Below are positions 34,077-62,871 of a DNA stretch of 64,000 bases, piece by piece. How positions within the stretch are numbered: the first letter of the stretch is position 1; each line of letters starts with the position of its first letter. Source of the stretch: Sphingomonas sp. Leaf20 (GTDB lineage: Bacteria; Pseudomonadota; Alphaproteobacteria; Sphingomonadales; Sphingomonadaceae); NCBI RefSeq assembly GCF_001421535.1, contig NZ_LMKN01000008.1:381979-445978 (forward strand). The letters run 5' to 3'. Below the pieces are notes generated by a model, which saw only the letters and a program-made list of their open reading frames with translations, searched no databases and was not told the origin of the DNA. A program made the translations under genes and the position numbers.

Positions 34077-34160
34077 CCGTCATCCTGACGAAAGTCAGGA
34101 TCCAGAGCCAGGAGCGCTGTGGCCGGTTACCCTGGATCCTGACTTTCGTCAGGATGACGG
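34077..34160. repeat. REP/BIME-like inverted hairpin pair (element R3)
   Basis: Arms 34077-34105 and 34132-34160 are perfect 29-bp reverse complements with a 26-bp spacer. Each arm holds the mini-hairpin TCCTGAC-GAAA-GTCAGGA between CCGTCA and TCCAG. It lies between the thiolase stop and the cyclophilin start, both on the minus strand. Confidence 0.9.
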
Positions 34161-34199
34161 GAGGGGTTAGGGCGCGGCATCCTAGCCCCTCCCGCCGCG

Positions 34200-35396
34200 T
34201 CAGACGATCTCGAACAGGCCGGCGGCACCCATGCCGCCCGCGGTGCACATCGAGACCACGACATAGCGGACGCCGCGCTTGCGCCCCTCGATCAGCGCGT
34301 GGCCGACGAGGCGCGAGCCGGTCATGCCGAAGGGGTGGCCGACCGCGATCGCGCCGCCATTGACGTTGTACCGCTCGGGATCGATGCCGAGATGGTCGCG
34401 GCAGTACAGGCATTGCGACGCAAACGCCTCGTTCAGCTCCCACAGGCCGATATCCGCCACCGACAGCCCGGCGCGGTCGAGCAGCTTCGGGATCGCGAAG
34501 ATCGGGCCGATGCCCATCTCCGCGGGGTCGCAACCCGCAGCCTGGAAGCCGCGATAGATGCCGAGAATGTCCTTGCCCTCCGCCTCCGCGGTCCGCCGGT
34601 CCATCAGCAGCTGTGCGGACGCGCCGTCGGACAGTTGGCTGGCATTGCCCGCGGTGACGCTGGTGCCTGGCCCTGAGAAATCGCCGCCCGGCCAGACCGT
34701 CTTGAGCCCCGCGAGCGCCTCGCGCGTGGTACCGGCGCGAATGCCCTCGTCCTGCGCGAGCGTGACGGTCTCGCTGCCGGTCCGATTGCCCTGCTTGTCG
34801 AACAGCGCCTTTTCGACGGTGATCGGCGCGATCTCCTCGGCAAAGGCACCGTTCGCAATGCCGGCCGCGGCGCGTTGCTGGCTCATCGCGGCATAGGCGT
34901 CCTGCGACTCGCGGCTGATCCCGTATTTCGCCGCGACGATCTCCGCGGTCTCGATCATCGGGATATAGGCGGCGGGCTGCTTCTCGGTGACGCTCTGGTT
35001 GACGAAGCGGGGGGCGTCCTTCGTCACGGTGTAGCTGATCGACTCCATCCCGCCCGCCAGCGCGACGTCGGCCTCGTCGCAGATGATCGTGCGCGCGGCG
35101 AGCGCGACCGCGGTCAGCCCCGACCCGCATTTCCGGTCGAGCGTGAACGCCGGCACCGATTCGGGAAGCCCGCCCGCGAAAATCGCCATCCGCCCGGCAT
35201 TGCCCCCTTGCGTCCCCCATTGGTTGCCGACCCCCCAGAACACCTCGTCGATGCGCGCCGGATCGATCCCGGCACGCTCGACCGCGGCGTTCATCACATG
35301 CCCCGCCAGCACCGGGGCCTCGGTCGCGTTGAACGCGCCGCGATAGGCTTTGCCGATGGCGGTACGGGCAGTCGAGACGATGGCGGCTTCACGCAT
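34200..35396 (-). CDS. Thiolase family acetyl-CoA C-acyltransferase
   Basis: 398 aa. The nucleophile cysteine is in DRKCGSGLTAVALA, the catalytic His in NGGAIAVGHPFGMTGSRL, and the second Cys in SMCTAGGMGAAG; all three thiolase signatures are present. Near the N-terminus RTAIGKAYRGAFN is typical. It either cleaves 3-ketoacyl-CoA in beta-oxidation or condenses acetyl-CoA; the neighbourhood of acyl-CoA dehydrogenase and BCKDH favours degradation. Confidence 0.93.
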   Translation of the reverse strand: MREAAIVSTARTAIGKAYRGAFNATEAPVLAGHVMNAAVERAGIDPARIDEVFWGVGNQWGTQGGNAGRMAIFAGGLPESVPAFTLDRKCGSGLTAVALAARTIICDEADVALAGGMESISYTVTKDAPRFVNQSVTEKQPAAYIPMIETAEIVAAKYGISRESQDAYAAMSQQRAAAGIANGAFAEEIAPITVEKALFDKQGNRTGSETVTLAQDEGIRAGTTREALAGLKTVWPGGDFSGPGTSVTAGNASQLSDGASAQLLMDRRTAEAEGKDILGIYRGFQAAGCDPAEMGIGPIFAIPKLLDRAGLSVADIGLWELNEAFASQCLYCRDHLGIDPERYNVNGGAIAVGHPFGMTGSRLVGHALIEGRKRGVRYVVVSMCTAGGMGAAGLFEIV

Positions 35397-35433
35397 GCTA
35401 AGACCTTTCGAGGACCGGGTATGGTCGGGCGGT

Positions 35434-35847
35434 CTAGATCGTCGGGGCCGCGTTTGGAAGGGGGCGGCGCGACAGCCGCCATTGCCAGAGCATCAGCAGC
35501 GGCACGACAACGGTTTCCATGCCGAGCCCGAGGACGTGGCCGGGCGAGGGGACGCCGACGTCGATCAGCGAGACGAGCCGCGCCAGCCCGCCGATCACGA
35601 TCAGCCCGCCCAGCAGTCTGAACCGCGGCCCCTTCGTCTCGATCCGCGGGATGCAGCTCGCGAACCCGATCCCCGTCGCGAAGAAGATGCCCGAGATATA
35701 GCGGAAGTGGCTGTCGAGATCGCGCGGGACATCGGCGAGGTGTCCGAACGGGGCGGGGCCGTGGAGGACGCCCTGACCGCCGACGAGCAGCGGCAACAGG
35801 CACGCAACCGCGACCACGGCCTGCAACAGGCGCCGTTCGCGCATCAT
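35434..35847 (-). CDS. DUF4345 family membrane protein
   Basis: 137 aa, four predicted helices. The recognisable block is LDSHFRYISGIFFATGIGFA, then IPRIETKGPRFRLLGGLIVI, GGLARLVSLIDVGVPSPGH and VVPLLMLWQWRLS, the DUF4345 pattern. Its ATG overlaps the stop of the upstream DUF2721 gene (ATGA), so the two are coupled. Function unknown. Confidence 0.82.
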   Translation of the reverse strand: MMRERRLLQAVVAVACLLPLLVGGQGVLHGPAPFGHLADVPRDLDSHFRYISGIFFATGIGFASCIPRIETKGPRFRLLGGLIVIGGLARLVSLIDVGVPSPGHVLGLGMETVVVPLLMLWQWRLSRRPLPNAAPTI

Positions 35848-36332
35848 GACAGCTTGTCGATCAGTTCGGCGGTGTCGAGCAGTTCGGGACGGATCCTGAA
35901 GGCGACCAGCGAGATCCGCACCTCGATCATGAAGCTGGCAAAGGCGGCGATCAGCAGGACCATCGCGAGGATGAAGGAGACCGCGACATAGGTGCCGAAA
36001 TGCAGCTTGGCGAGCTCGGCGATGAACAGCAATGCGATCACGATACACGTCATGATCGCGCTGGAGACCGCGAGAAAGAGCGCGGCGTTGATGATCGTCA
36101 TCCGCCGGTCGAGTAGCCGCAATTCCCAGATATGGCGGACGCGTTCGCGTCCCGCGCTGCTCGGGTGGAGCTTTTCGAGCTGTCGGGCGCGGTCGATCAC
36201 GCGCGACAGCCGGCCGGCCAGCACGTTGAGCAACTGGCCGATGCCCGCGAGCATGAAGACGGGGGCAAGCGACAGCTGGATCGTCTGCGCGATCGTCGAA
36301 AGGGCGGGAAGCGGTATCATCGCGGCCACCAT
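35844..36332 (-). CDS. DUF2721 family membrane protein
   Basis: 162 aa from the ATG at 36332 (ATG at 36320 is an alternative). STIAQTIQLSLAPVFMLAGI, GQLLNVLAGRLSRVIDRARQ and LLDRRMTIINAALFLAVSSA give the DUF2721 signature; three hydrophobic helices. The frame stays open far upstream but only as a shadow. It overlaps the DUF4345 gene downstream. Function unknown. Confidence 0.85.
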   Translation of the reverse strand: MVAAMIPLPALSTIAQTIQLSLAPVFMLAGIGQLLNVLAGRLSRVIDRARQLEKLHPSSAGRERVRHIWELRLLDRRMTIINAALFLAVSSAIMTCIVIALLFIAELAKLHFGTYVAVSFILAMVLLIAAFASFMIEVRISLVAFRIRPELLDTAELIDKLS

Positions 36333-36446
36333 GCGGAATAACCGCGTCCTAGGGAAGCGCCGTGCGCGCCATCGCCATCGCGCGCTCCTCCATCGCGGGG
36401 GTGTTCGCAGCGAAGAAGGGGCACGGCTTGGTAACGCATCGATGCT

Positions 36447-37583
36447 ATGCAGCGATCGATGTCCAAGCCCATGCTCCTGTCCGACTTCGTGCAGTTGCCA
36501 CCCGACGTCCGTGTGGGGCTGGTCGAGGGGCTCAGCGCGGCGATCGACACGGTCGCCGAACGCGCCGCGGAGAGCCACCGCTTCCTGCGCTATGGCTGGT
36601 ATGCCGCGGCGCTCGCCGCCTATGGCGGGCAGGCGCGCACGCTCGTCGTCGAGGAAGACGACGTGCCCGTGCTGGCATTGCCGTTCGTGCCGCTCGGGCC
36701 AGCGATGCTGCGGCTCGCGACGGTGCCGGGCTGTTACTGGCCGTTTCGCAGCTTCGGCATGGCGATCGGCGCGAGCGAGGCGGCGCAGGCGGCTGCCCTC
36801 ACCACGCTCGCCACGCATATCAACGGCTTGCGGATAGGCCCGGTCGAGGACGGCGATCCGGCGGCGACCGCGTTGATCGCGCGCGCGCGCGGAGCGGGCT
36901 GGACCGCGATCGACCGGCATGTCGGTGACAGCTGGGTGCTCGATCTCGCGCCGGTCGTCGACGGCCAGCCCTGGCCGCGCAATTCGACGCTGCGCAAGAA
37001 CCGCTTTCACGAAAAGCATCTGGCCGGGCATGGCGCGCTCGACTGGCGGTTCCTCGATGGTGCCGACTGGCCGCAGGGTTTCGCCGACCTTGGCGCGGTC
37101 GAGGCGACGAGCTGGGTCGCGCACGACACCGATCGGCGCGACATGAAGTTCGTCGCGGAGGGCCATCTCGCCTTCTGGACCGCGGCGGTGGTCGACCCGG
37201 TGCTCGGCGACATGTTCCGGGCCGCGGTGCTCGACGTCGACGGCGCGCCCGCCGCCTTCTCGTTCGACATCGACACGGGCGCGCTGATCTACGCGATCGC
37301 CAACAGCTATGATCCGCGCTTTGCCAAGCATTCGCCGGGCAAGCTGCTCTACTGGCGCAACCTCGTGGCGGCGATGGCGCGGGGCGCGGCGCGCGTCGAC
37401 TGGGGCGCCGGCGACAGCGGGTACAAGCAGGTGATCGGCGCGACGCAGGGCGCACCGATCCGTGACTGGCTGCTGCTCAGGCCCGGGCTGCCGGCGCTGG
37501 CGGGACGGATGCTGCGTCACGCATGGCGACGCAGCGGCGGCCGCCAGACGCGGGCTGAGTCGCGGGCTCAGTCGCGGATATAG
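36447..37583 (+). CDS. GNAT-like acetyltransferase (BioF2/CelD-type double fold)
   Basis: 378 aa (ATG at 36459 is an alternative start). Two GNAT-like halves: the N-terminal LLSDFVQLPPDVRVGL ... TLVVEEDDVPVLALPFVPLG, and a C-terminal half with LRKNRFHEKHLAGHGALDWR and YDPRFAKHSPGKLLYWRNLV, the latter close to the CelD/BcsL and BioF2-like acetyltransferase pattern, then DWGAGDSGYKQVIGA. Substrate unknown; relatives act in polysaccharide or cell-surface pathways. The last 16 bp overlap the 3' end of trmB on the other strand. Confidence 0.8.
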   Translation: MQRSMSKPMLLSDFVQLPPDVRVGLVEGLSAAIDTVAERAAESHRFLRYGWYAAALAAYGGQARTLVVEEDDVPVLALPFVPLGPAMLRLATVPGCYWPFRSFGMAIGASEAAQAAALTTLATHINGLRIGPVEDGDPAATALIARARGAGWTAIDRHVGDSWVLDLAPVVDGQPWPRNSTLRKNRFHEKHLAGHGALDWRFLDGADWPQGFADLGAVEATSWVAHDTDRRDMKFVAEGHLAFWTAAVVDPVLGDMFRAAVLDVDGAPAAFSFDIDTGALIYAIANSYDPRFAKHSPGKLLYWRNLVAAMARGAARVDWGAGDSGYKQVIGATQGAPIRDWLLLRPGLPALAGRMLRHAWRRSGGRQTRAESRAQSRI

Positions 37584-38248
37584 CGAAAGTACCAGACCTC
37601 GTGGCCCTGCCGCCGTGCCTTGCGCTCGTAGCGCGTTTCGGGCCAGTCGTCGGGGCGCGTCAGAAAGTCGGCGGGGGTCCGCGCCTGCCAGGTGAAGTCG
37701 CGGCGCTGGTCCATGATCATCATCGACCAGCGGCAATAAGTCGGATCGTCGGTGCCGAGCCGGAATTCGCCGCCCGGCTTGAGCTTGGCGGCGATCGTGT
37801 CGAGCGGACCGTGGTTGACCATCCGGCGCTTGGCGTGGCGCGCCTTGCGCCACGGATCGGGATGCAGCAGGTACAGCCGGTCGAGACTCTCATCGGGTAG
37901 CCGCTCGATCACCTCGAGCGCGTCGCCCATATAGAGGCGGACATTGTCCAGCGCGCCATCGCGGATATGGCCAAGCGCGCCGACGACGCCGTTGAGGAAC
38001 GGCTCGCAGCCGATAAAGCCGATATCGGGGTTCGCCGCGGCCTGCCCCGCCAGATGTTCGCCTGCGCCGAAGCCGATCTCGACGTGCAGCGGGCGGTCGT
38101 CGCCGAACAGCCGCATCGCGTCGATCGGCCCGTCTTCGGGCACCGACAGGCGTGGCAGCATGTCCTCGACAAGCGCGGACTGGCCCTGGCGGAGCTTATG
38201 GCCCTGGCGACGGCCATAGAGGCGGCGGATAATGGAGGGGTCGGTCAT
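37568..38248 (-). CDS. trmB: tRNA (guanine-N7-)-methyltransferase
   Basis: 226 aa from the ATG at 38248. SAM-binding block HVEIGFGAGEHLAGQA, then IGCEPFLNGVVGALGHI, NVRLYMGDALEVIERLP, and the TrmB motif LYLLHPDPWRKARHAKRRMV; the C-terminus YERKARRQGHEVWYFRYIRD is also typical. It makes m7G46 in tRNA. In many alphaproteobacteria it follows metK; here AI-2E, lipoprotein and PAP2 genes on the other strand lie between them. Confidence 0.95.
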   Translation of the reverse strand: MTDPSIIRRLYGRRQGHKLRQGQSALVEDMLPRLSVPEDGPIDAMRLFGDDRPLHVEIGFGAGEHLAGQAAANPDIGFIGCEPFLNGVVGALGHIRDGALDNVRLYMGDALEVIERLPDESLDRLYLLHPDPWRKARHAKRRMVNHGPLDTIAAKLKPGGEFRLGTDDPTYCRWSMMIMDQRRDFTWQARTPADFLTRPDDWPETRYERKARRQGHEVWYFRYIRD

Positions 38249-38418
38249 CGCCGCGCGCTCTAGCGGTCGATTGCCACGGAGCAAAGCGTCGAGCGACCCG
38301 TTACAATGGCGTAATGGCCAAATCCGGTGGGTCCGGATCGCCCGGATGGGCAGGCAGACCGAGTCGCGAGGGTGCCGCCGCCTGCGGTATCGGGCGGACG
38401 GCGACGGGAGACGCAACG

Positions 38419-39030
38419 ATGACGGCGAAGAACGATACGGCGGCGGCACTCGTCGAGGCGGACCGCAAGACGACGTACAAGCTCGCCGAGAAGCGTGATG
38501 CGCCGCTGGTCAAGGCGACGGGGTTCCTCGCCGAAGTCGCGGACCAGCCGCAACTGATCGCGACGTCCATCGGGACGTTGGTGATCGGCCTGATCGCGCG
38601 ACGGCCCGACCTGACGCGGGGTGGCGCACGCATGCTGGCCGCGCATTTTGCCGCGACGATGGCAAAATCGGCGATCAAGCACTCGGTCGATCGCACGCGC
38701 CCCGCGCCCGCGATCGAGAAGGGGCGCGCACGCTTCGAACCCGGCGACAGCGAGGATCATGAGGAAACCTCGTTCCCGTCGGGGCATACCGCCGGCGCGG
38801 TCGCGGTCTCGCGCGCGGCGTCGCGCGATATCGACGGCGTGGCAGCGCCCTCCGCGCTCGCGACGATCGCGGTCGCCGCCGCGCAACCCGTCAACGGCAA
38901 GCATTATCTGTCGGATCTCGTCGTCGGTGCAGCCGTCGGCTGGATCGCCGAGGCGATGGTGAGTGCGGTATTCGACCGGGTATTTCCGCCGGTCGACGAC
39001 GCGCACATCGTCGCGGCCGGGCGGGCCTGA
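38419..39030 (+). CDS. PAP2-superfamily phosphatase
   Basis: 203 aa from the ATG at 38419; an ATG at 38314 would add 35 residues of low quality. The three PAP2 motifs are present: KHSVDRTRP, SFPSGHTAGAVAVSRAASRD and GKHYLSDLVVGAAVG (His and Asp of motif 3). An N-terminal amphipathic region and only about two to three hydrophobic stretches suggest a short form. It is likely a membrane lipid-phosphate phosphatase. Confidence 0.88.
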   Translation: MTAKNDTAAALVEADRKTTYKLAEKRDAPLVKATGFLAEVADQPQLIATSIGTLVIGLIARRPDLTRGGARMLAAHFAATMAKSAIKHSVDRTRPAPAIEKGRARFEPGDSEDHEETSFPSGHTAGAVAVSRAASRDIDGVAAPSALATIAVAAAQPVNGKHYLSDLVVGAAVGWIAEAMVSAVFDRVFPPVDDAHIVAAGRA

Positions 39031-39098
39031 TACGCAAGACTGATAGGCGCGTGGATCGCACGGCATCGTCGCCACGAAAGGCGTGATTCATCGCCGAG

Positions 39099-39124
39099 GG
39101 AACCGTTACACCTGCGTGACGGTT
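39099..39124 (+). promoter_or_regulatory. Candidate EcfG-type general stress promoter
   Basis: GGAAC at 39099-39103, 17 nt, then GGTT at 39121-39124, 28 bp before the lipoprotein ATG. This is one base off the alphaproteobacterial sigma-EcfG consensus GGAAC-N16/17-CGTT. It would put the small lipoprotein under general stress response control. Inference from motif only. Confidence 0.45.
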
Positions 39125-39152
39125 ACGTCGGCCTTAGAAAGGGATTTTTCCA

Positions 39153-39437
39153 ATGAAGACAATTGCTACCGCACTGATCTTGGGCATGCTCACGGTCCCG
39201 CTCGCCGCTTGTGGCGGCAAGGGCGACGACAAGCTCGGCAGCCAGGTCGAGGGTGCCGCCGAGAATCGCGCGGACGCGCTTGAAGCGGCTGCCGACAATC
39301 TCGAGGATCGCGCCGAGGCCGTGCGTGACCAGGGCGAGAAGCAGGGCGAAGCGATCGACGATGCGGACGTGAACGCCGCCGCAATGTCGGACACGCAGAA
39401 GGCGGCACTCGTCAACGGCAGCGCAAAGCTCCGTTGA
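39153..39437 (+). CDS. Small alanine/glutamate-rich lipoprotein
   Basis: 94 aa. Lipobox VPLAA-C after MKTIATALILGMLTVPLAAC. The mature part is a single charged helix with seven-residue periodicity (EGAAENRADALEAAADNLED, RAEAVRDQGEKQGEAIDDAD), like small envelope lipoproteins. It ends GSAKLR. A stress-type promoter sits just upstream and a strong hairpin just downstream, so it is probably monocistronic. Function unknown. Confidence 0.85.
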   Translation: MKTIATALILGMLTVPLAACGGKGDDKLGSQVEGAAENRADALEAAADNLEDRAEAVRDQGEKQGEAIDDADVNAAAMSDTQKAALVNGSAKLR

Positions 39438-39443
39438 TCGATC

Positions 39444-39481
39444 CACCCGATCCCCGTCGGCAGGTGCTGGGGGATCGGGTG
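39444..39481 (+). terminator. Terminator-like hairpin after the lipoprotein gene
   Basis: Perfect 12-bp stem (CACCCGATCCCC / GGGGATCGGGTG) with a 14-nt loop, beginning 7 bp after the lipoprotein stop. No U-tract. Confidence 0.6.
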
Positions 39482-39556
39482 TCGACCGGAGCACCGGCGC
39501 CGTACCGCCATGACGCCCGGGGGAGTCATGCGGCGGGGATTCATGGGGGATACACG

Positions 39557-40666
39557 ATGATCGATCGGCGTCGGCTCGAAACGGGCGGCTTTCTGATATT
39601 CTTGATGGTGATCACGGTCGCGCTTGCGGTCGTGGTGTCGACCTTTGCGCTCGCGCTGCTGTGGGCGGCGCTGGCGGCGATACTCTTCCAGCCATTGTAC
39701 CAGTGGCTGCTGACGCGGATGCCCGGCAGGCGCAACCTCGCCGCGGCGCTGACGTTGCTGATCATCCTGTTCGCGGTGGTCGTTCCGAGCATGATCATCG
39801 GCGGTATGATCGTCGACCAGGCCGGGACGGTCTATACGCGCATCCAGAGCGGCGACATCAACTTCGCCGCCTATTTCAATCAGGTGCACGACGCACTGCC
39901 GACGCGCCTGCAGACGCTGCTCGACAAGGCCGGGTTCGATTCGATCGAACGCATCCAGGCGCGGCTGTCGGAGACGATGGGCAACAGCGTGCGGACGATC
40001 GCGAGCCAGGCGCTCTCGATCGGTCGCAACGCGGCGGCGTTCCTGCTGGCGTTCGGTATCGCGCTCTACGTGATGTTCTTCCTGCTCCGCGACGGCGAGA
40101 CGATCGGACCCAAGGTGTGCGACGCCTTGCCGCTCGAGCGTTGGGTGACCGGTGCACTGGTGGAGAAGTTCGTGTCGGTCGTCCGTGCGACGATCAAGGG
40201 GACCGTGATAGTCGCGCTGGTGCAGGGCGGCCTCGGCGCGCTGACGTTCTGGATCGTCGGGTTGCCGGCCGCATTGCTGTGGGGGCTGTTGATGGCGCTG
40301 ACGTCGCTGCTGCCCGCGCTCGGACCGGCGATCGTCTGGGTGCCGGTCGCGGTGTACCTGCTCGCGACCACGGCGATCTGGCAGGGCCTCGCGGTGATCG
40401 TGTCGGGCGTGGTGGTGATCGGGCTGGCGGACAACATCCTGCGTCCGATCCTCGTCGGTCGCGACACGGGGATCCCCGACTATATCGTGCTGGTGACGAC
40501 GCTGGGCGGGATCGAACTCGTCGGTCTCAGCGGGATCGTCGTCGGACCGCTCGTCGCGGCGCTGTTCCTGACGGCATGGCAGATCCTGACCGACCAGCGA
40601 CATCGTCAGCCCGCGGGTGCGCCGCTGGTCGTCGAGCGGGATACGGGCAGGGCGGGGCCGGACTGA
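39557..40666 (+). CDS. AI-2E family transporter (UPF0118)
   Basis: 369 aa from the ATG at 39557 with GGGGGA upstream. Eight or so hydrophobic helices in the AI-2E arrangement: FLIFLMVITVALAVVVSTFA, LAAILFQPLYQWLLTRMPGR, then a long amphipathic segment, FGIALYVMFFLLRDGETI, KGTVIVALVQGGLGALTFWI, and GLADNILRPILVGRDTGIPD near the end. Members have been linked to AI-2 export or sodium/proton exchange, so the substrate is uncertain. Confidence 0.9.
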   Translation: MIDRRRLETGGFLIFLMVITVALAVVVSTFALALLWAALAAILFQPLYQWLLTRMPGRRNLAAALTLLIILFAVVVPSMIIGGMIVDQAGTVYTRIQSGDINFAAYFNQVHDALPTRLQTLLDKAGFDSIERIQARLSETMGNSVRTIASQALSIGRNAAAFLLAFGIALYVMFFLLRDGETIGPKVCDALPLERWVTGALVEKFVSVVRATIKGTVIVALVQGGLGALTFWIVGLPAALLWGLLMALTSLLPALGPAIVWVPVAVYLLATTAIWQGLAVIVSGVVVIGLADNILRPILVGRDTGIPDYIVLVTTLGGIELVGLSGIVVGPLVAALFLTAWQILTDQRHRQPAGAPLVVERDTGRAGPD

Positions 40667-40700
40667 CCGGCCCGCCCCCGCGCACGCTGCTCCAGATACG

Positions 40701-40737
40701 AAAAAGCCTCCCCCGGACCGTCCGGGGGAGGCTTTTT
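40701..40737. terminator. Bidirectional intrinsic terminator between AI-2E gene and metK
   Basis: AAAAAGCCTCCCCCGGAC then GTCCGGGGGAGGCTTTTT: a perfect inverted repeat with A-tract on one side and T-tract on the other, so it works as a rho-independent terminator for both converging genes. Confidence 0.95.
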
Positions 40738-40758
40738 CATGAGCCGATACGCGCCGTG

Positions 40759-42000: not shown

Positions 42001-42040
42001 GGAACCTCTTCGCAAAAGGCCTGCCGCGAAAGGGTCGGCA

Positions 42041-42072
42041 AGCGTCATATAAGGAAAGCTTTATATGACGCT
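42041..42072 (-). promoter_or_regulatory. Perfect dyad upstream of metK, candidate operator
   Basis: AGCGTCATATAA (42041-42052) and TTATATGACGCT (42061-42072) form a perfect 12-bp inverted repeat with an 8-nt spacer, AT-rich in its centre, between the lnt stop and metK. It could bind a methionine/SAM regulator (an ArsR-type SahR-like repressor is one possibility) or form an RNA stem. Confidence 0.5.
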
Positions 42073-42073
42073 T

Positions 42074-44223: not shown

Positions 44224-44233
44224 GGATCACAGA

Positions 44234-44566: not shown

Positions 44567-44648
44567 CGTCATCCTGACGAACGTCGGGACCCAGAGTTAC
44601 ACACGGCGCGCTCGTGATCCTGGGTCCTGACTTTCGTCAGGATGACGG
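44567..44648. repeat. REP/BIME-like inverted hairpin pair (element R4)
   Basis: Right arm 44620-44648 contains the same TCCTGAC/GTCAGGA hairpin as R3; the left arm 44567-44594 differs at two positions (GAAC loop, one stem base). It separates two converging genes. Confidence 0.85.
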
Positions 44649-47466: not shown

Positions 47467-47876
47467 CGGCTCCGACCAATCCTCCCCCGCCAGGGGGAGG
47501 TGGCAGGCGCAGCCTGACGGAGGGGGCGGTAAGCGATGGCCCGCGTTCCGTGTCCTCCCCCTCCGGCGCCTTCGGCGCCACCTCCCCCTGGCGGGGGAGG
47601 ATCGGCGGCCCCCCATGAGGCGCGGCGGCAACACCCCGGCGTGTTCCCGCATGCCTCCCGCGATTTCGCTGTCCACCACCCGAATCGCCTGCCACACTCA
47701 CCCTCGATGCAGCTTCGCCCACGCGACACGAATCATCTCCGGCCGGGCCCCCCGGCGCCGCTTGAACGCGCGGCCTCCCATGCTCATCTCTGGTCGGACG
47801 CCATCCCAGGCGTGATGCGTGTCGGCCGGAATTTGCCCCATTACCGTTCCGACACGCCTGCCCCCGAAAGGACCGC
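47467..47876. other. miaB-phoH gap containing an inverted-repeat element
   Basis: 410 bp. The first 135 bp hold element R7 (47479-47602). The rest up to the phoH ATG shows no credible gene or tRNA; frames here are open only because of base composition. GAAAGGACCGC immediately precedes the phoH ATG. Confidence 0.55.
47479..47602. repeat. REP-like inverted hairpin pair (element R7)
   Basis: Outer hairpins CCTCCCCCGCCAGGGGGAGG (left) and CCTCCCCCTGGCGGGGGAGG (right) are reverse complements, and the inner parts (ACGGAGGGGGCGG / CCTCCCCCTCCG) also pair roughly. Same two-hairpin plan as R1-R6 but a different sequence family. Confidence 0.85.
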
Positions 47877-54979: not shown

Positions 54980-55288
54980 CTTCGCCCCGGGGACGGGCGC
55001 GCCGGATATGACGTTCAGATCGGGGACCAGGTGATCGCCCCGCGACGGCCCGCGGCCAAATTTTCGCGATTGTACAGGCAGGTGTCCTGCATGGCCTTCC
55101 ACAAGCATTCGCGCTCCATTTGGCATCCGCCGTCAACATCGTCGGCTCGCGGCCTTCGAATGGTCGGCCGATATTGCAACTATGAGACGAAATGATGGCG
55201 TTTCTATGGGTTTGCCCGGATATCACGTCCGCACCCGCCACGGCGCCGCAGCGCTGGCGGAGCGCGGCGCGGGGCGCTACAGGGCGTC

Positions 55289-58282
55289 ATGGTGTCTTTA
55301 CCGCGTGCGCTCGGCGCTGCTCTTCTCCTGTCCCTCGTGGCCGGTCTTGCGATCCCCGTCAGCGGACAATCGGACTCCCCCGCCAAGCGTCGGGTCCCCG
55401 CGAAACCAGCGCCTGTCTCCAGCCAGGCGGCCGCCCCGCAGCCGCAGCGTCCCGTCCAGGTCGCGATGCCCGGCGAGGCGCCGACGCTGCCCGGACTGAC
55501 CGGCGTCGACACGACGGCCTGGCTGTACAAGGGCAGCGACCTCACGCGCGATCCCGAATGGAAGTTCGGGACGCTGCCCAACGGCGTGCGTTTCGCGGTG
55601 CGCAAGAACGGCGTTCCCCCCGGCCAGGTCTCGGTGCGCGTGCGGATCGACGCGGGATCGCTCAACGAGACCGATGACGAGCGCGGATACGCGCATTTCA
55701 TCGAGCATCTGTCGTTCCGCGGATCCGAATATGTTCCCGACGGCGAGGCGAAGCGCGTCTGGCAGCGGTTCGGCGCGACGTTCGGGTCGGACACCAACGC
55801 GCAGACGACGCCGACCTCGACGACGTACAAGCTCGACCTGCCCTCGGCGACCGAGGCGGGGCTCGACGAAAGCCTCAAGATCCTGTCGGGGATGATGGAA
55901 AAGCCCGTCCTGACCGATGCGACGGTCACGGCCGAACGTCCCGTCGTGCTCGCCGAGCAGCGTGAACAGCCGGGGCCGCAAGTGCGGATCGGGGATGCCG
56001 TGCGCTCGACCTTCTTTGCAGGCCAGCCGCTGGCGGATCGCTCGCCGATCGGCAGCATCAAGACGCTCGAGGCCGCGACCGGCGCGAGCATCAAGGCATT
56101 CCACGACCGCTGGTACCGGCCCGAGAACACCGTCGTGATCATTTCGGGCGACATGGACCCGACACTGTTCGGGCGGCTGGTCGTCAAGAACTTCGCCGAC
56201 TGGAAGGGCGCGGGTCCGTTCACCCCGGCGCCGAGCTTCGGCAAGCCCGACCCGAGCGCGCCCGCCGCGACGACGATCGCCGAATCGTCGCTGCCCGCGA
56301 TCGTCACGCTCGGCGTGGTACGCCCCTGGGTCTACAAGGACGACACCGCGATCATGAACCAGACGCGGCTGGTCGACGTTCTCGCCACCCGCCTGATCAG
56401 CCGCCGGCTCGAAACGCGCGCGCGTGCGGGCGGCAGCTATCTCCAGGCGGGCGTGTCGATCGACGACGTATCGCGCTCCGCGAACCTGACCAGCGTCAAC
56501 ATCGTGCCGATCGGTACGAACTGGGAAGCCGCGCTGAAGGACGTGCGCGCGGTCATCTTCGACGCGCAGACCAACGCGCCGAGCCAGGCCGAGGTCGACC
56601 GCGAATATGCCGATTTCGACACCATCATGCGCACGCAGGTCGAAACCGCCCGCGTCGAGGCGGGGGCGCGACAGGCCGACGACATGGTCGGAGCCCTCGA
56701 CATCCGCGAGACGGTCGCCGGGCCTGAAACCTCGTACAAGATCCTTCAGGATGCCAAGGCCAAGGGCATGTTCACGCCCGCCACGTTGCTGGCGGCGTCG
56801 AAGCGCATCTTCGAAGGAACCGCGACGCGTGCGCTGGTCAACACGATCACGCCCGATTCGACCGCAGCCGCCAAGCTTGAAGCGGCGCTGAAGGCGGATG
56901 TCAGCGGGCTTGCGGGCACGCGTCGCCAGCAGAATGCGGTGACATTCGCCGCGCTGCCGTCGCTCGGCAAGCCCGGCGCGATCGCGTCGCGCGCCAAGAT
57001 CGCCGCGTTCGACATGGAGCAGGTGAATTTCGCGAACGGCACGCGGTTGCTGCTGTTTCCCAACACGGGCGAGACCGGCCGCGTCTATGTGCGGGTCCGG
57101 TTCGGACGCGGGTATCAGGCGATCCCGTCCAACCGTCCAAGCCCCGCATGGGCGGGCGATCTCGCGCTGGTCGCAAGTGGCGTCGGCAAGCTCGACCAGG
57201 GCGATCTCGACCAGCTGACGGCGGGACGGCGGATCGGGCTCGATTTCGGGATCGACGACGATGCCTTCACGCTCGGCGCGCTGACGTCGCCGGCCGACTA
57301 TGCGGATCAGCTGAAGCTGATGGCGGCCAAGCTCGCTTTCCCGGCATGGGACGCGGCGCCGGTGGCGCGCGCGCGCGCGGCGGCACTGGCGGCGTTCGCG
57401 GGGTATGACTCGTCCCCCGACGGCGTCCTGTCGCGCGATCTCGAAGGCCTGCTCCGCGATGGCGATCCGCGCTGGGGCACGCCATCGCGCAAGGCGGTCG
57501 AGACGCTCAACGCAAAGGACTTCCGCAAGTTCTGGGAGCCGGTGCTCGCGACGGGGCCGATCGAGGTCTCGGTGTTCGGCGACGTGAAGACCGAAGAGGC
57601 GGTGGCGGCGGTTGCCAACAGCTTCGGCGCGATGGCGGCGCGCAAGGCGTCGACCAGCACCGGCGCACCGGTCGGCTTCCCCGCCCACGTGGCGACGCCG
57701 GTGATGCGGACGCATACCGGCCCGGAGAACCAGGCGGCGGCGGTCATCGCCTGGCCGACCGGCGGGGGCATCGCGGCGATCACCGACAGCCGCCGGCTCG
57801 ACGTGCTGGCACAGGTGTTCGCCGACAGGCTGTTCGAGCGGCTGCGGCAGGCGGCGGGCGCCAGCTACAGTCCGAACGTCCAGAGCCAGTGGCCGGTCGG
57901 AATGGACAGCGGCGGGCGGCTCGTCGCGATCGGCCAGGTCGCGCCCGAAAAGGTCGCGTTCTTCTTCGAGACCGCGCGCAAGATCGCGGCCGAGCTTGTC
58001 TCGACGCCGATCGCCGAGGACGAACTGCAGCGGATCAAGCGGCCGATGGGGCAGTACATCCTGCGTGCCTCGACCGGGAACCAGTTCTGGTTGCAGCAGC
58101 TCGGCGGCGCCACCTACGATCCGCGACGGATCGACGCGACCAAGCGGATCGCCGAGGATCTGGTCGCGACGACGCCTGCGGAGTTGCAGGCGATCGCGGC
58201 GAAGTATCTGCGGCCGGACCGCGACTGGACGATGGCAGTGGTGCCCGCTGCCGCGGCCGGGCCAAAGGCGCCAGCAAAATAG
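55289..58282 (+). CDS. M16 (insulinase/pitrilysin) family peptidase, exported
   Basis: 997 aa. Signal peptide (LGAALLLSLVAGLAIPVSGQ), Pro/Ala-rich spacer, then the catalytic M16 domain with YAHFIEHLSFRG, the inverted zinc motif HxxEH, and a downstream Glu in ERPVVLAEQRE. Further inactive-like M16 halves follow (HDRWYRPENTVVIISGDMDP; LFERLRQAAGASYSPNVQSQ). The four-domain length fits family M16. It probably degrades peptides in the periplasm or outer membrane. It is followed by a hairpin and a lipoprotein gene. Confidence 0.93.
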   Translation: MVSLPRALGAALLLSLVAGLAIPVSGQSDSPAKRRVPAKPAPVSSQAAAPQPQRPVQVAMPGEAPTLPGLTGVDTTAWLYKGSDLTRDPEWKFGTLPNGVRFAVRKNGVPPGQVSVRVRIDAGSLNETDDERGYAHFIEHLSFRGSEYVPDGEAKRVWQRFGATFGSDTNAQTTPTSTTYKLDLPSATEAGLDESLKILSGMMEKPVLTDATVTAERPVVLAEQREQPGPQVRIGDAVRSTFFAGQPLADRSPIGSIKTLEAATGASIKAFHDRWYRPENTVVIISGDMDPTLFGRLVVKNFADWKGAGPFTPAPSFGKPDPSAPAATTIAESSLPAIVTLGVVRPWVYKDDTAIMNQTRLVDVLATRLISRRLETRARAGGSYLQAGVSIDDVSRSANLTSVNIVPIGTNWEAALKDVRAVIFDAQTNAPSQAEVDREYADFDTIMRTQVETARVEAGARQADDMVGALDIRETVAGPETSYKILQDAKAKGMFTPATLLAASKRIFEGTATRALVNTITPDSTAAAKLEAALKADVSGLAGTRRQQNAVTFAALPSLGKPGAIASRAKIAAFDMEQVNFANGTRLLLFPNTGETGRVYVRVRFGRGYQAIPSNRPSPAWAGDLALVASGVGKLDQGDLDQLTAGRRIGLDFGIDDDAFTLGALTSPADYADQLKLMAAKLAFPAWDAAPVARARAAALAAFAGYDSSPDGVLSRDLEGLLRDGDPRWGTPSRKAVETLNAKDFRKFWEPVLATGPIEVSVFGDVKTEEAVAAVANSFGAMAARKASTSTGAPVGFPAHVATPVMRTHTGPENQAAAVIAWPTGGGIAAITDSRRLDVLAQVFADRLFERLRQAAGASYSPNVQSQWPVGMDSGGRLVAIGQVAPEKVAFFFETARKIAAELVSTPIAEDELQRIKRPMGQYILRASTGNQFWLQQLGGATYDPRRIDATKRIAEDLVATTPAELQAIAAKYLRPDRDWTMAVVPAAAAGPKAPAK

Positions 58283-58288
58283 CACGGG

Positions 58289-58308
58289 GGCCGGGGGCAA
58301 CCCCGGCC
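58289..58308 (+). terminator. Terminator-like hairpin after the M16 peptidase gene
   Basis: GGCCGGGG-GCAA-CCCCGGCC, an 8-bp perfect stem beginning 7 bp past the stop. The loop GCAA is GNRA-type. No U-tract. Confidence 0.55.
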
Positions 58309-58461
58309 GACCCGAAGCGCGCGCTCCCGGCGGCAAAAAGTTCCCTCGCCCGGCGTCGAACGGCGTAATTTCAGCGCAGTTGGTCGAACATCGCGCCCGG
58401 GGGCCGGATCGATCGCCGGGTCGCGGGCGTTGCTAAGTCGTTCATACCCGGGAGTGTATTG

Positions 58462-58965
58462 ATGAATAAGACGTGGTTAGCGCTGGCGGTTGCCGGCGGA
58501 CTGGGCGTGTCCGCCTGTTCGGGCTCGGCCTCGAACGAAATGGGCACTGCGAACGATACGGGCGCAACGAATGACTCGGGCGACGCGATGGTGTCACTGC
58601 GCAATCTGGGCGAATCGAACATCGCGGCGCCGGCACCGGCGTCGTTCACGGTGAAGGGCGATCTGATCCCCACCCCGTCGGACACCGCGTCGCGGTATTT
58701 CCTGTTGCGCGAACGGCGGGCGATCGGCGGCACCGTGATCGCGATCATCCGGCAGGAGCATGCCGGGCGCGTCGCCTATGCCCGCACCGAAGTCGATTGC
58801 GAGCACCGCCTGTTCCATGTGCTCGGCGTCGCCGCCCGACGCTCGCTGGTCGAGACGACGATCGCGTATGACGGCCCGCTGCGGCCGATCGAGGGGCTGC
58901 CCCTGCGCGAGGAGCTTGCGACCTATGTGTGCAAGCGGAGCAACATCCCGCTCGGCGCGGCCTGA
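58462..58965 (+). CDS. Lipoprotein of unknown function
   Basis: 167 aa from the ATG at 58462 (a TTG directly before it is also in frame); GGGAG lies upstream. Lipobox VSA-C in LAVAGGLGVSACSGS. A Thr/Asn/Ser-rich spacer is followed by a compact domain, SRYFLLRERRAIGGTVIAII and ARTEVDCEHRLFHVLGVAAR, ending RSNIPLGAA with two further cysteines (DCEH, VCKR). I recognise no family. Confidence 0.75.
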   Translation: MNKTWLALAVAGGLGVSACSGSASNEMGTANDTGATNDSGDAMVSLRNLGESNIAAPAPASFTVKGDLIPTPSDTASRYFLLRERRAIGGTVIAIIRQEHAGRVAYARTEVDCEHRLFHVLGVAARRSLVETTIAYDGPLRPIEGLPLREELATYVCKRSNIPLGAA

Positions 58966-58971
58966 ACGAGC

Positions 58972-58995
58972 GGGGCCCGCCACCGGCGGGTCCCC
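58972..58995. terminator. Hairpin between the lipoprotein and acyl-CoA synthetase genes
   Basis: GGGGCCCGCC / GGCGGGTCCCC: a ten-pair stem with one bulged T, between converging genes. Probably a shared terminator. Confidence 0.5.
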
Positions 58996-59015
58996 CGTGT
59001 CCGGGTGCGGTACGA

Positions 59016-60803
59016 TCAGCTTTTGTAAAGCGCGTCGAGCCGTTCGCCATAGGCCTGCCGAATGACGTGACGCCGGATCTTCAGGCTCGGCGTCAGTTGT
59101 TCGTTCTCGATCGCGAACGGCCCGTCCGCAAGGACGAAGCGCCGGACGCGTTCGGTCACCGTCAGATCCTTGTTCACGCGCTCGATCGCATGACCGATCG
59201 CGGTGCGATATTCGCTGTTCTCGGCGAGTTTTCCGAAGCTGCAGACGTCACCATTCGCCGCACACCATTGCTGCGTCCATTCGGGATCGGCGACGACCAG
59301 CGCGACCATGTACGGACGCTTGTCGCCCGCGATCATCGCCTGGACGATCTCGGGCTGGAGCGTGAGCATCCCCTCGATCTTCTGCGGGGCGACATTCTCG
59401 CCCTTGTCGTTGATGATCAGGTCCTTCTTGCGATCGGTGATGCGGATGCGACCCTTGTCGTCGATCTCGCCGACGTCGCCGGTGTGCAGCCACCCGTCCT
59501 TGAGCACCTTCGCGGTCTCGGCGTCGTTGCGCCAATAGCCGTGCATGACGAGCTCGCCGCGCACCAGGATCTCGCCATCCTCGGCGATCCGCACCTCGGT
59601 ATCCTTGAGCGGCGGGCCGACCGAGTCCATCCGCACGCCGGCTTGCGGGCGGTTGCACGAGATGACGGGCGCGGCCTCGGTCTGGCCATAGCCCTGGAGG
59701 AAGGTCAGGCCGATCGATTCGAAGAACAGCCCGACCTCCGGATTGAGCGGCGCGCCGCCGGAGATCATCGCCTTCAGTCGGCCGCCGAACTTCTTCGCGA
59801 TCTTCGGCTTGAACAGGGTCGCGACGGCGGCCTGCGCCGGGCGGTCGATCAGGCGGAGCTTGCCCGCATAGCGCCTGGCGCCGATGTCGAGCGCGCGGGC
59901 GAGCAGATAGGCGGACGCGCCGCCCTGTTTCTCGATGGTCTTCGAGATGCGCGTGCGCAGCACCTCGAACAGACGGGGGACGACGAACATGATCGTCGGG
60001 CGCGTCTCCTCGATGTTCGCGGCGAGCTTTTCGAGGCCTTCGGCATAATAGATCTGGCCGCCCAAGGAGATCGGGAAATGCTGGCCGCCGGTATGTTCAT
60101 AGGCGTGGCTGAGCGGCAGGAACGAGAGGAAGACCTCGTCGTCCCAGCCGAAATCCTCCGAGATCACCGTGGCGCATCCGGCGCAATTGTGGAGGATCGC
60201 GCCGTGATGCTGCATCACGCCGCGCGGGGCGCCGCCGGTGCCCGAGGTGTAGATGATGCAGGCGAGATCGTCGCGGGTGAAAGTCGCACGCGCCGCCGCC
60301 GCCTCGGGCGTGGTCGGGTGCGCGGCGATCAGCGCGTGCCAGTTGTGGAAATCGATCGAGGCGGGGACGCGCATGTCCTCGAGCCCGATCACGATCTGCG
60401 CCTGGTTCGAGCGCAGGACCGCGGGGAGCACGGTCTTCGCCAGCTTCGCGGTCGAGACGATGATCGCGCAGGCGCCCGCATTCTCGATGATGTGGAGGTG
60501 ATCGCGTTCGGTGTTGGTGACATAGGTCGGCACCGTCACGCAGCCCGCCGCCATGATCGCGAGGTCGCTGAGGCACCATTCGGGGCGATTCTCGGCGACC
60601 AGCATCACCCGGTCGCCGGGCTTCAGGCCGATCGCGGTCAGTGCGGTGGCGAGGCTCGCCACCTGACGCGCGGCGTCCGCCCAGCTGGTTGCGACCCAGC
60701 TGCCGCTCTGCTTGGTCCAGAGGAACGGTGCGTCACCCCGCTCGGCGGCGCGCGTGAAGAACATCGTGACGAGGTTCGGGAATCGTTCGAGCTGGCGGGG
60801 CAT
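59016..60803 (-). CDS. AMP-dependent long-chain acyl-CoA synthetase
   Basis: 595 aa from the ATG at 60803. ANL-superfamily motifs: IIYTSGTGGAPRGVMQHHGA, the core GYGQTEAAPVI, WLHTGDVGEIDDKGRIRITD and the C-terminal lysine region KIRRHVIRQAYGERLDALYK. The N-terminal FPNLVTMFFTRAAERGDAPF and LKPGDRVMLVAENRPEWCLS are typical of FadD15-like synthetases. It activates fatty acids for beta-oxidation or lipid synthesis. Confidence 0.93.
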   Translation of the reverse strand: MPRQLERFPNLVTMFFTRAAERGDAPFLWTKQSGSWVATSWADAARQVASLATALTAIGLKPGDRVMLVAENRPEWCLSDLAIMAAGCVTVPTYVTNTERDHLHIIENAGACAIIVSTAKLAKTVLPAVLRSNQAQIVIGLEDMRVPASIDFHNWHALIAAHPTTPEAAAARATFTRDDLACIIYTSGTGGAPRGVMQHHGAILHNCAGCATVISEDFGWDDEVFLSFLPLSHAYEHTGGQHFPISLGGQIYYAEGLEKLAANIEETRPTIMFVVPRLFEVLRTRISKTIEKQGGASAYLLARALDIGARRYAGKLRLIDRPAQAAVATLFKPKIAKKFGGRLKAMISGGAPLNPEVGLFFESIGLTFLQGYGQTEAAPVISCNRPQAGVRMDSVGPPLKDTEVRIAEDGEILVRGELVMHGYWRNDAETAKVLKDGWLHTGDVGEIDDKGRIRITDRKKDLIINDKGENVAPQKIEGMLTLQPEIVQAMIAGDKRPYMVALVVADPEWTQQWCAANGDVCSFGKLAENSEYRTAIGHAIERVNKDLTVTERVRRFVLADGPFAIENEQLTPSLKIRRHVIRQAYGERLDALYKS

Positions 60804-60881
60804 GGTCTCTCCTGGGGCGCTCTTGCTGCTCGATATTCGACACTGCGGCATGCTTCAAAGCACGGGCAGTATAACAATATT

Positions 60882-60964
60882 CGTCATCCCAGCGAAAGCT
60901 GGGATCCAGAGCCGCGACCGGCGTCGCCTTTGGCTCTGGATCCCGGGTCGAGCCCGGGATGACG
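60882..60964. repeat. REP/BIME-like element, hetero-pair of hairpins (element R5)
   Basis: Left hairpin TCCCAGC-GAAA-GCTGGGA (60887-60904) and right hairpin TCCCGGG-TCGAG-CCCGGGA (60941-60959). The flanking CGTCA...TCCAGAGCC and GGCTCTGGA...TGACG are exact reverse complements. It lies 13 bp past the ggt stop. Confidence 0.9.
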
Positions 60965-60977
60965 ATGGTTTAAACGC

Positions 60978-62732
60978 TCATTCCGGCGCGCGTTGCAGCG
61001 CACCCACGCGCTGGATCTGTGTCACCGTGCCGTCCTGCGCGATCGCGACGCCTTCGCTGCGCGGGTCCGCAGCACCGACCCAGCGGCCACCCACGCGCTC
61101 GACCGCGTTCGCCTTGAGGCCGAGCGCGGTAACCTGCACCGTCTCGCCGAGCGCCTCGAGCGCGGGGACCATCGCCTCGCGCTCGGTGCCCTTCTCGACC
61201 GCGGCGACATGGCCGGGCGCGTAGATCAGCCCGAGCGCGATCGAATCCTGCGCGGACAGCTTCCAGTCGACGACGCCGATGATCGCCTTCGCGACCTGCG
61301 CGATGATCGTCGAGCCGCCCGCCGCGCCGACCGCGAGCCGGACCTTGCCGTCGGGGCCGTAGACGATCGTCGGGCTCATCGAACTGCGCGGCCGCTTGCC
61401 GCCCTCGACGCGGTTGGCGACGAGATAGCCGTCCTTGTCGGGCACGGTGTCGAAGTCGGTGAGCTGGTTGTTGAGCACGGTGCCGTCGACGCTCAGCCCC
61501 GAGCCGAAATAGCCCTCGACCGTGGTCGTCACCTCGACGACGTTGCCGCGCGCATCGGCGATCGCGAGATCAGTCGTGCCGGCGACCTCGCTGACGGGTG
61601 CGGACTGCCGCGCGGGGGCGCCGGGGGGCGAGCCTGCGCTGACGCTCGGCATCGTCGCGGTCGGCTGGATCAGCGCCGACCGCGACGCGAGATAGGCGGG
61701 GTCGAGCATGCCCTTGACCGGCACCGGCACGAAATCGGGATCGCCGACATAGAGGTCGCGGTCGGCATAGGCGAGCCGCGAGCTTTCCGCGAACAGGTGC
61801 CAGGCCTGCGCGCTGTCCTTGCCGAGCTTGCCCATGTCGAAGCGTTCGAGCTGCTTCAGGATCATCAGCACGGTGATGCCGCCCGATGAGGGCGGGCCCA
61901 TGCCGCAGACGCGGTAGACGCGGTATCTGACGCAGACGGGCGGGCGCGACTTCGCGTCGTAGGTGGCGAGGTCGCCCGTCGTCATCTTCGACGGATTGCG
62001 CGCGGCGGTGTTGACCGCGGTGACGATCTTCTGCGCCTGCGGGCCGACATAGAAGCTGTCGGCGCCCTGGGTCGCGATGCGCTGGAGGAGCGCGGCCTGC
62101 GCGGGGTTCCGGATCGTCGCGCCGACCGCGACGGGCGATCCGTCGGGGGCGGAGAACAGCGCGCGCGTCTCGGGCGTGATGTGGCTGCCATAGGCCTTCA
62201 TCCCGTTGACGAGTCGCGGCGTGGCCTTGAAGCCGGTGGTCGCGAGCCGGATCGCGGGGTCGAACAGCCGCGCCCAGGGGAGCTTGCCCGACGCCCGGTG
62301 CGCGAGCGCCATGCCGCGCAGCGCGCCGGGGACGCCGACGCTCCGACCGCCGGGAACCGCGTCGCGGTGGGTGAGCGGGGTGCCGTCGGGAGCGTAGAAC
62401 CAGCGCGGATCGGCGGCGGCGGGCGCCTTTTCACGCGCGTCGATCGTGCTGATCGCGCCGTTCGCCGCGTGGCTGACCCAGAAGCTGCCGCCGCCGATGC
62501 CGGAGCTTTGCGGCTCGACGACGTTGAGCGCCAGCATCGTCGCGATCGCCGCGTCGGTCGCGCTGCCGCCCGCGCGCAGGATCTCGGCACCCGCCGCGGC
62601 GGCGCGCGGGTCGGCGGCGCTGACCATGCCTTGGTCCTTCGCCGGAGTGGGGCCGGGGGCGGGGGCGGTCTGGTGGGCTTCGGCGGTGGCGGTGGGGAGG
62701 AGGAGGGCGAGCGCGAGGAGGGGAGTCTTCAT
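60978..62732 (-). CDS. ggt: Gamma-glutamyltransferase
   Basis: 584 aa from the ATG at 62732. Signal peptide MKTPLLALALLLPTATAEA. The autoprocessing threonine is T386 in VAGTTDLAI, starting the small subunit, followed by GNVVEVTTTVEGYFGSGLSV and VLNNQLTDFDT. GMGPPSSGGITVLMILKQLE and MSPTIVYGPDGKVRLAVGAA are also typical. The usual TTH(F/Y)S is TTDLA here, so the His after the nucleophile pair is replaced by Asp. It hydrolyses glutathione in the periplasm. The gene is bracketed by repeat elements R5 and R6. Confidence 0.94.
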   Translation of the reverse strand: MKTPLLALALLLPTATAEAHQTAPAPGPTPAKDQGMVSAADPRAAAAGAEILRAGGSATDAAIATMLALNVVEPQSSGIGGGSFWVSHAANGAISTIDAREKAPAAADPRWFYAPDGTPLTHRDAVPGGRSVGVPGALRGMALAHRASGKLPWARLFDPAIRLATTGFKATPRLVNGMKAYGSHITPETRALFSAPDGSPVAVGATIRNPAQAALLQRIATQGADSFYVGPQAQKIVTAVNTAARNPSKMTTGDLATYDAKSRPPVCVRYRVYRVCGMGPPSSGGITVLMILKQLERFDMGKLGKDSAQAWHLFAESSRLAYADRDLYVGDPDFVPVPVKGMLDPAYLASRSALIQPTATMPSVSAGSPPGAPARQSAPVSEVAGTTDLAIADARGNVVEVTTTVEGYFGSGLSVDGTVLNNQLTDFDTVPDKDGYLVANRVEGGKRPRSSMSPTIVYGPDGKVRLAVGAAGGSTIIAQVAKAIIGVVDWKLSAQDSIALGLIYAPGHVAAVEKGTEREAMVPALEALGETVQVTALGLKANAVERVGGRWVGAADPRSEGVAIAQDGTVTQIQRVGALQRAPE

Positions 62733-62788
62733 CGCGCGCGAACCTAGCGCGGATCGGGTGGGTGGCAAGGCGTCCGCCTCAATCTCAC

Positions 62789-62871
62789 CGTCATCCTGGG
62801 CTCGACCCAGGATCCAGAGCCACGAAGATCACCGTGTGTGGCTCTGGATCCCAGCTTTCGCTGGGATGACG
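62789..62871. repeat. REP/BIME-like element, hetero-pair in the opposite orientation to R5 (element R6)
   Basis: Left hairpin TCCTGGG-CTCGA-CCCAGGA (62793-62811) and right hairpin TCCCAGC-TTTC-GCTGGGA (62850-62867). The outer flanks pair as in R5, but the two hairpin types appear in reverse order. It lies between pyrD and ggt. Confidence 0.9.

What the first reader, a model, noticed from the sequence alone, without database searches (positions are those of the whole stretch)
34077..62871. Four dispersed repeats whose stems change together while the loop is kept
R3, R4, R5 and R6 share one plan: CGTCA, a mini-hairpin, TCCAG, spacer, then the mirror image. The hairpin appears as TCCTGAC-GAAA-GTCAGGA in R3/R4 and as TCCCAGC-GAAA-GCTGGGA in R5/R6. 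A second hairpin type appears as TCCCGGG-TCGAG-CCCGGGA and TCCTGGG-CTCGA-CCCAGGA. Several stem positions differ on both sides in a compensating way, and the GAAA (GNRA-type) loop is constant. This suggests the folded form matters, as RNA or as extruded DNA. REP/BIME elements moved by RAYT transposases have this architecture in other bacteria; membership of a known family is not shown.
Basis: partly seen in the sequence, partly recalled or inferred. Interest (0 to 1): 0.75.

Follow-up and report, generated by a model that had tools for sequence, protein, structure and literature searches.

The report
Paired DNA hairpins with fixed spacing
Four short mirror-image DNA repeats belong to a family with more than 300 half-copies in this (likely Sphingomonas) genome; each is predicted to fold into two hairpins, the gap between the two halves stays at 25-27 bases while its letters change between related species, and they likely serve as long-lived DNA landmarks rather than as elements still on the move.

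Summary
R3-R6 are head-to-head dimers of CGTC-tagged REPs (CGTC, 8-bp stem, 4- or 5-nt loop, CCAG tail), a class described by Di Nocera et al. 2013 without a known mover. The genome has 340 half-unit matches (control 0). Half-units collected by flanks alone show stem covariation. The RAYT link fails: no Y1 transposase gene in G000 or in 16 of 18 other genomes with these repeats. Loops fit stable DNA-loop motifs better than RNA GNRA. Best reading: an old, constrained DNA structure with a spacing ruler, likely read by a host factor. Function and original mover are unproven.

The parts
34078..34159 (.). R3: head-to-head CGTC-REP dimer, left half 34078-34105, spacer 34106-34131 (26 nt), right half 34132-34159; both hairpins TCCTGAC-GAAA-GTCAGGA; between two genes on the - strand (cyclophilin, thiolase)
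44567..44647 (.). R4: dimer, left half 44567-44594 (loop GAAC), spacer 44595-44619 (25 nt), right half 44620-44647 (loop GAAA on - strand); between convergent genes (PHA_gran_rgn +, GSDH -)
   Evidence: collapsed to one hairpin in G319
60882..60964 (.). R5: hybrid dimer, left half 60882-60909 (loop GAAA), spacer 60910-60935 (26 nt), right half 60936-60964 (5-nt loop, CTCGA on - strand); between two - strand genes (AMP-binding, gamma-glutamyltranspeptidase)
   Evidence: dimer shared with G018, other palindromes in other relatives
62789..62871 (.). R6: hybrid dimer, left half 62789-62817 (5-nt loop CTCGA), spacer 62818-62843 (26 nt), right half 62844-62871 (loop GAAA on - strand); between two - strand genes (gamma-glutamyltranspeptidase, dihydroorotate dehydrogenase)
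   Evidence: 83-nt dimer at the same site in seven species, one hairpin in G319 and G462

Best explanation
R3-R6 are four copies of a large family of CGTC-tagged REP head-to-head dimers: two half-units, each predicted to fold into a hairpin, face each other across a 25-27 nt spacer, sit in chromosomal sites shared with related species, and likely work as a DNA structure read by a host factor rather than as elements now on the move. Shown: anatomy, copy number, stem covariation, narrow spacer length, slow change of the halves against fast change of the spacer at shared sites, inheritance of the sites, no Y1 transposase gene in this genome at the tested sensitivity. Inferred: that the acting form is folded DNA (the loops fit c[GNAN]g and CNNG plus one base; hybrid dimers fold into a four-armed cross, homodimers into a long hairpin); that the narrow spacer length means two half-sites measured by a protein or a junction of fixed geometry; that turnover is by replication slippage at built-in direct repeats (ATCC..ATCC, GGAT..GGAT), which leaves one hairpin inside CGTCA/TGACG, by strand switching that flips a dimer in place, and by tandem copying of dimer plus linker. 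The enzyme that first spread the family is unknown and probably absent from this genome.
For: Same plan in 340 half-unit matches and 35 to 336 per genome in 17 of 17 clade genomes. Covariation. Spacer 25-27 nt in 215 of 215 distinct main-family dimers though gaps up to 100 nt would have counted, while linkers between dimers in the same G000 stretches range from 22 to 130 nt (7 of 47 in 25-27). Eight ungapped orthologous dimers: halves 13 of 451 positions differ, spacer 54 of 207, flanks 164 of 766; without the flipped site 10 of 395, 36 of 181, 150 of 667 (rows). 41 of 51 matched sites in G319 keep CGTC-tagged sequence. Paired changes at R3 (G000/G319) and R5 (G000/G018). Loops GNAN 53 of 58, closing C-G 53 of 58, CNNG 30 of 36.
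Against: No binding factor or phenotype is known; the ruler rests on spacing alone, and PMC3733652 already notes REP spacers of differing sequence but similar length. The 8 sites are those of 21 aligned that kept an ungapped dimer; 13 had lost, shortened or replaced it. Different palindrome families occupy the same gaps and the dimers are readily lost, so no single copy looks essential. Spacing differs in other lineages (CCCCGC-type 37 and 39 nt; Herbaspirillum 31-38 nt). ViennaRNA DNA energies give no clear preference for the strand with the GNAN loop. Conservation could also come from conversion among copies.
Confidence: 0.6

Rival explanations
1. Miniature transposons still moved in trans by a RAYT/TnpA-REP (Y1 HUH) enzyme, as for GTAG REPs and REPINs.
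For: REP-like inverted hairpin pairs, high copy number, many identical halves.
Against: No PF01797 match in G000 or in 17 of 19 repeat-bearing genomes in all; no association with copy number in 296 genomes; of 30 Y1 loci examined 3 have one candidate half-unit nearby (one a good CGTC half, in L071) and none a pair, and none of the 3 loci has one; GTAG tag absent; matched sites are shared between species.
Confidence: 0.07
2. RNA-level elements: transcribed hairpins at gene ends that terminate or protect mRNA.
For: All four window copies lie downstream of at least one gene; convergent gaps are enriched, 26 of 72 clusters against 33 of 162 gaps, p=0.014; very stable RNA folds.
Against: 12 of 72 clusters lie in divergent gaps, the same share as 27 of 162 gaps (crude gene calls); half of the distinct loops are not GNRA; a 1-nt tolerance of a 26-nt loop is not expected for an RNA hairpin; no Rfam match.
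Confidence: 0.2
3. Neutral palindromes: halves and stems stay alike because the arms template each other (quasi-palindrome correction) or are converted from other copies, without any function.
For: Changes come as matched pairs (R3, R5); dimers flip and collapse.
Against: Self-templating explains matched changes but not the slow rate of the halves (2.5-2.9%) or the held spacer length with free sequence.
Confidence: 0.12
4. Sites used or spread by an IS element (IS110-type or another) or MITEs of a DDE transposase.
For: Neisserial dRS3 is classed as CGTC-1, and REPs can be IS targets.
Against: No IS110 gene in G000 or G319; 4 of 9 genomes have one, and 0 of 15 IS110 loci have a half-unit in the stretch held, about 1.5 kb each side. 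Target duplications could not be judged, since no clean empty site was found. DDE families were not searched.
Confidence: 0.01

Closest known systems
CGTC-1 and CGTC-2 REPs (Di Nocera, De Gregorio and Rocco 2013, PMC3733652), including neisserial dRS3
   Same: CGTC tag, 8-bp stem, 4- or 5-nt loop, CCA tail, mostly head-to-head dimers, no associated transposase gene, present in Sphingomonas wittichii and S. chlorophenolicum
   Different: Here 43 of 98 dimers in the G000 stretches join a 4-nt-loop half to a 5-nt-loop half, and tandem arrays are common, whereas the paper calls CGTC clusters rare
GTAG REPs, REPINs and RAYT/REPtrons
   Same: Short hairpins in inverted pairs with a short spacer, high copy, intergenic
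   Different: No GTAG tag and no Y1 transposase in this genome
BIMEs of E. coli (recalled and as described in PMC3733652)
   Same: Alternating inverted units, tandem arrays with constant period
   Different: Other sequence; binding of gyrase or other proteins not tested here

Membership tests
CGTC-tagged REP | Unpaired CGTC at one end, 8-bp stem (families 1, 2) starting with A-T and T-A pairs, 4- or 5-nt loop, tail CCA | tested here: met
   fold of R3 left half and R5 right half: 4 unpaired, 8 bp, loop 4 or 5, 4 unpaired CCAG; definition
CGTC-tagged REP | Mostly head-to-head dimers | tested here: met
   98 dimers (196 of 240 half-units) in the G000 stretches examined, 44 half-units unpaired
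CGTC-tagged REP | Many dispersed copies | tested here: met
   340 matches, control 0
CGTC-tagged REP | No dedicated transposase gene | tested here: met
   Y1_Tnp: none in G000, 2 of 19 genomes; IS110: none in G000; other transposase families were not searched
GTAG REP / RAYT (REPtron) | GTAG tag | tested here: not met
   tag is CGTC in all 8 window halves
GTAG REP / RAYT (REPtron) | RAYT (Y1) gene flanked by the repeats | tested here: not met
   no Y1 gene in G000; 0 of 30 Y1 loci from the order with a pair
MITE of a DDE transposase | Target-site duplication | tested here: inconclusive
   no clean empty site among 51 matched sites
Rfam family | Match at gathering score | tested here: not met
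   0 matches in the window
BIME-2 type gyrase site | Gyrase binding or cleavage | not testable with these tools
   needs bench work

The most novel reading that the evidence does not exclude
CGTC dimers are not transposon debris but maintained chromosomal sites: a two-part DNA code in which a host protein reads two hairpins, one on each strand, held 25-27 bp apart (about 54 bp centre to centre, near five helical turns) while the letters of the spacer do not matter. Related species may exchange whole palindrome families at the same gap yet keep a palindrome there, and the sites can flip in place.
Probability: 0.3. Interest if true: 0.8.

Novelty: new member of a known kind. Interest (0 to 1): 0.5.

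Why it matters
CGTC REPs have been described since 2013 without a mover or a role. Following single sites across species separates insertion from upkeep: sites are inherited, the halves and their distance are held, the spacer is free. That gives a testable prediction (a factor that measures spacing) and a picture of how dimers decay, flip and multiply that needs no transposase.

Tried and rejected
RAYT mover: not supported. IS110: not supported. Plasmid and phage copies of R3: none at E<=1e-4 and 1e-3 (the tool may leave out records near the window's genome). Rfam: none in the window. Clean empty sites to read insertion junctions: none found; the closest relative is 79-94% identical over the aligned window segments. 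Strand-specific hairpin stability by computed DNA energies: no clear difference. Spacers as captured foreign DNA (CRISPR-like): rejected, they resemble each other (AGCCA...GTAACC and its reverse) and align between species. Strict downstream-of-genes rule: not upheld. Model R1, built from the 8 window halves: its genome search scored 150 of 2390 candidates, so pattern counts are used instead. The 5-kb DNA search of the genus scored 188 of 295 genomes; 107 were left out by the tool.

In one search the class 'remnant' includes L031:7912, where the match lies in what reads like a gene and is probably chance, and at least 3 of the 15 'half-unit' sites (R5, L037:4516, L038:4846) hold another CGTC subtype in G319. 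One search, with a looser caller, finds a dimer on both sides at 23 sites; one search finds 21.

Literature: PMC3733652, parts 1-3 of the text, part 1 of the Discussion and searched passages; PMC12306157, searched passages only; PMC2984261, one reference entry, which gives the title of Nakano et al. 2002 (that paper itself not read); all others only as search listings. I made no search aimed at whether fixed spacing, in-place conservation or flipping of CGTC dimers is in print.
Full report
What is there. Each of the four elements has a left half (CGTC, 8-bp stem, loop, CCAG), a spacer and a right half that mirrors the left. R3 and R4 carry 4-nt-loop hairpins on both sides; R5 and R6 carry one 4-nt-loop and one 5-nt-loop (CTCGA) hairpin. 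As single strands the homodimers R3 and R4 fold into one long hairpin and the hybrids R5 and R6 into a four-armed cross (RNA for all four; DNA for R3, R5 and R6). R4 lies between convergent genes, R3, R5 and R6 between genes on the same strand; all seven flanking proteins tested have Pfam matches.

Copy number and covariation. The genome holds 340 matches to a half-unit pattern against 0 for the reversed control. Half-units gathered only by CGTCAT and ATCCAG, in all DNA held, have interiors of 16 or 17 nt in 552 of 560 hits. In the 58 distinct 16-nt interiors pairs 1, 3, 4 and 5 exceed all 1000 permutations; pair 2 is nearly invariant and pair 6 (closing C-G) varies too little to tell (p 0.138). 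In the 36 distinct 17-nt interiors pairs 1 and 6 exceed all permutations and pair 3 has p 0.012. The permutations ignore relatedness, and part of the DNA was fetched because it holds the commonest half-unit, so identical interiors were counted once. In other Sphingomonadales the stems differ while the flanks stay: 172 of 296 genomes have at least one match to GTCATYCN{8,18}GRAYCCAG, some of them, in genomes with one or two matches, possibly by chance.

What it is called. The plan is that of the CGTC superfamily of REPs of Di Nocera et al. 2013, which names S. wittichii and S. chlorophenolicum among its hosts, places neisserial dRS3 in it and states that no dedicated transposase is known. The RAYT idea was tested and not met: PF01797 has no match in G000, matches 2 of 19 genomes that bear the repeats, and is not associated with copy number in 296 genomes (3 of 20 with 20 or more matches, 52 of 276 others). 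Of 30 Y1 loci examined none has a pair of CGTC halves.

Sites are old. The nearest genome found, G319, has contig lengths equal to those of Sphingomonas aerolata NW12. Of 84 repeat clusters in the fetched G000 stretches 51 had both flanks in the fetched G319 stretches; for the other 33 no joint match was found there, which may only mean that the matching stretch was not fetched. In G319 those 51 hold: intact dimer 21, half-unit(s) 15, one hairpin 5, scrap 3 (one probably chance), another palindrome family only 7. I have no baseline for how often unrelated gaps of G319 hold such palindromes. R6 is an 83-nt dimer in seven species (G000, G018, G450, G423, G442, G444, G356) and a single hairpin in G319 and G462, while G024 and G446 have another repeat there. 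At the R5 gap five palindrome types are found across the clade, and in seven of the loci examined (G356, G332, G380, G441, G017, G374, G435) almost no gap is left (0-20 nt). The 17 clade genomes tested hold 35 to 336 matches each.

What is held and what is free. In 8 ungapped orthologous dimers, of 21 single dimers aligned (the other 13 had lost, shortened or replaced the dimer), halves differ at 13 of 451 positions (2.9%), spacers at 54 of 207 (26%) and flanks at 164 of 766 (21%, with 260 gapped columns); without the flipped site 10 of 395, 36 of 181 and 150 of 667 (from the rows). Yet spacer length is 25-27 nt in 215 of 215 distinct main-family dimers (G000 100, G319 36, G018 1, other named Sphingomonas contigs and one uncultured isolate 78), although gaps up to 100 nt would have counted. 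Linkers between dimers in the same G000 stretches run from 22 to 130 nt, 7 of 47 in the range 25-27. Two CCCCGC-type dimers of G319 have 37 and 39 nt and four dimers of Herbaspirillum 31-38 nt, so the length belongs to the family. [quoted passage not shown]

How it changes. At R3 an inner pair went from T-A to C-G on both sides between G000 and G319, and at R5 a stem pair differs on both sides between G000 and G018. Two sites are flipped: L034:1195, where spacer and loop variants are both swapped (forward score 9.5, reverse complement 17.0), and L035:2244, where the spacer is reversed and one half is decayed (12.0 against 20.0; best of 500 shuffles 13.0 and 14.0). Of 24 sites compared (23 plus L035:2244) these are the two seen. 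Collapsed copies keep one hairpin inside CGTCA/TGACG (R4, R6, L032:11136, L048:758 and L050:16459 in G319; R6 in G462), as slippage between built-in repeats ATCC..ATCC or GGAT..GGAT would give (inference). Arrays repeat dimer plus linker, several with near-constant period.

DNA or RNA. The 4-nt loops are GNAN in 53 of 58 distinct half-units, with closing C-G in 53 of 58; 25 are GNRA. The 5-nt loops are CNNG plus one base in 30 of 36. Nakano et al. [quoted passage not shown] paper not read; the use made of it for 5-nt loops is mine). This favours a DNA fold and does not prove it; computed energies do not separate the strands. Gene context is mildly biased: convergent 26 of 72 clusters against 33 of 162 gaps (p 0.014), divergent 12 of 72 against 27 of 162. 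The gene calls were simple (GC by codon position) and misassigned a gene beside R4; 7 clusters inside called ORFs and 5 at stretch ends were left out.

Verdict. Ordinary in kind, a REP family of the CGTC class, but with evidence that its pieces are kept: held distance, slow halves, inherited sites. I commit to a DNA-structure site read by a host factor, at 0.6 for the whole statement, with RNA-level and neutral rivals open.

Noticed in passing
window 32329-32438 and 47476-47605: Two other palindromic repeats (CTCCCTCTCCCC... and CCAATCCTCCCCCGCC... inverted pairs). Repeats of the same kinds sit at sites of CGTC dimers in relatives.
   Followed up: partly
R5 site in relatives (L083, L086, L088, L098 and others) and G319 stretches: Two related palindrome families with other tags (TTGTTTCCCCGCGAAGGCGGGGACCCAG... 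and CCCCGGCGGAGGCCGGGGTCCAGTTGG...) share the CCAG-like tail and GNAG loops.
   Followed up: partly
G000 C1 900-960 kb and 1115-1262 kb (L031-L038): Dimer arrays are dense here, and their linkers and spacers are rich in C and poor in T on the + strand; unexplained.
   Followed up: no
L195, L209, L219 (Herbaspirillum), L216 (Maricaulis), L193, L223, L235 (Sphingobium): The exact 27-nt half-unit GTCATCCTGACGAAAGTCAGGATCCAG occurs in distant genera.
   Followed up: partly
window 42041-42072: A separate palindrome AGCGTCATATAAGGAAAGCTTTATATGACGCTT that shares GTCAT/ATGAC but not the CCAG tail.
   Followed up: no
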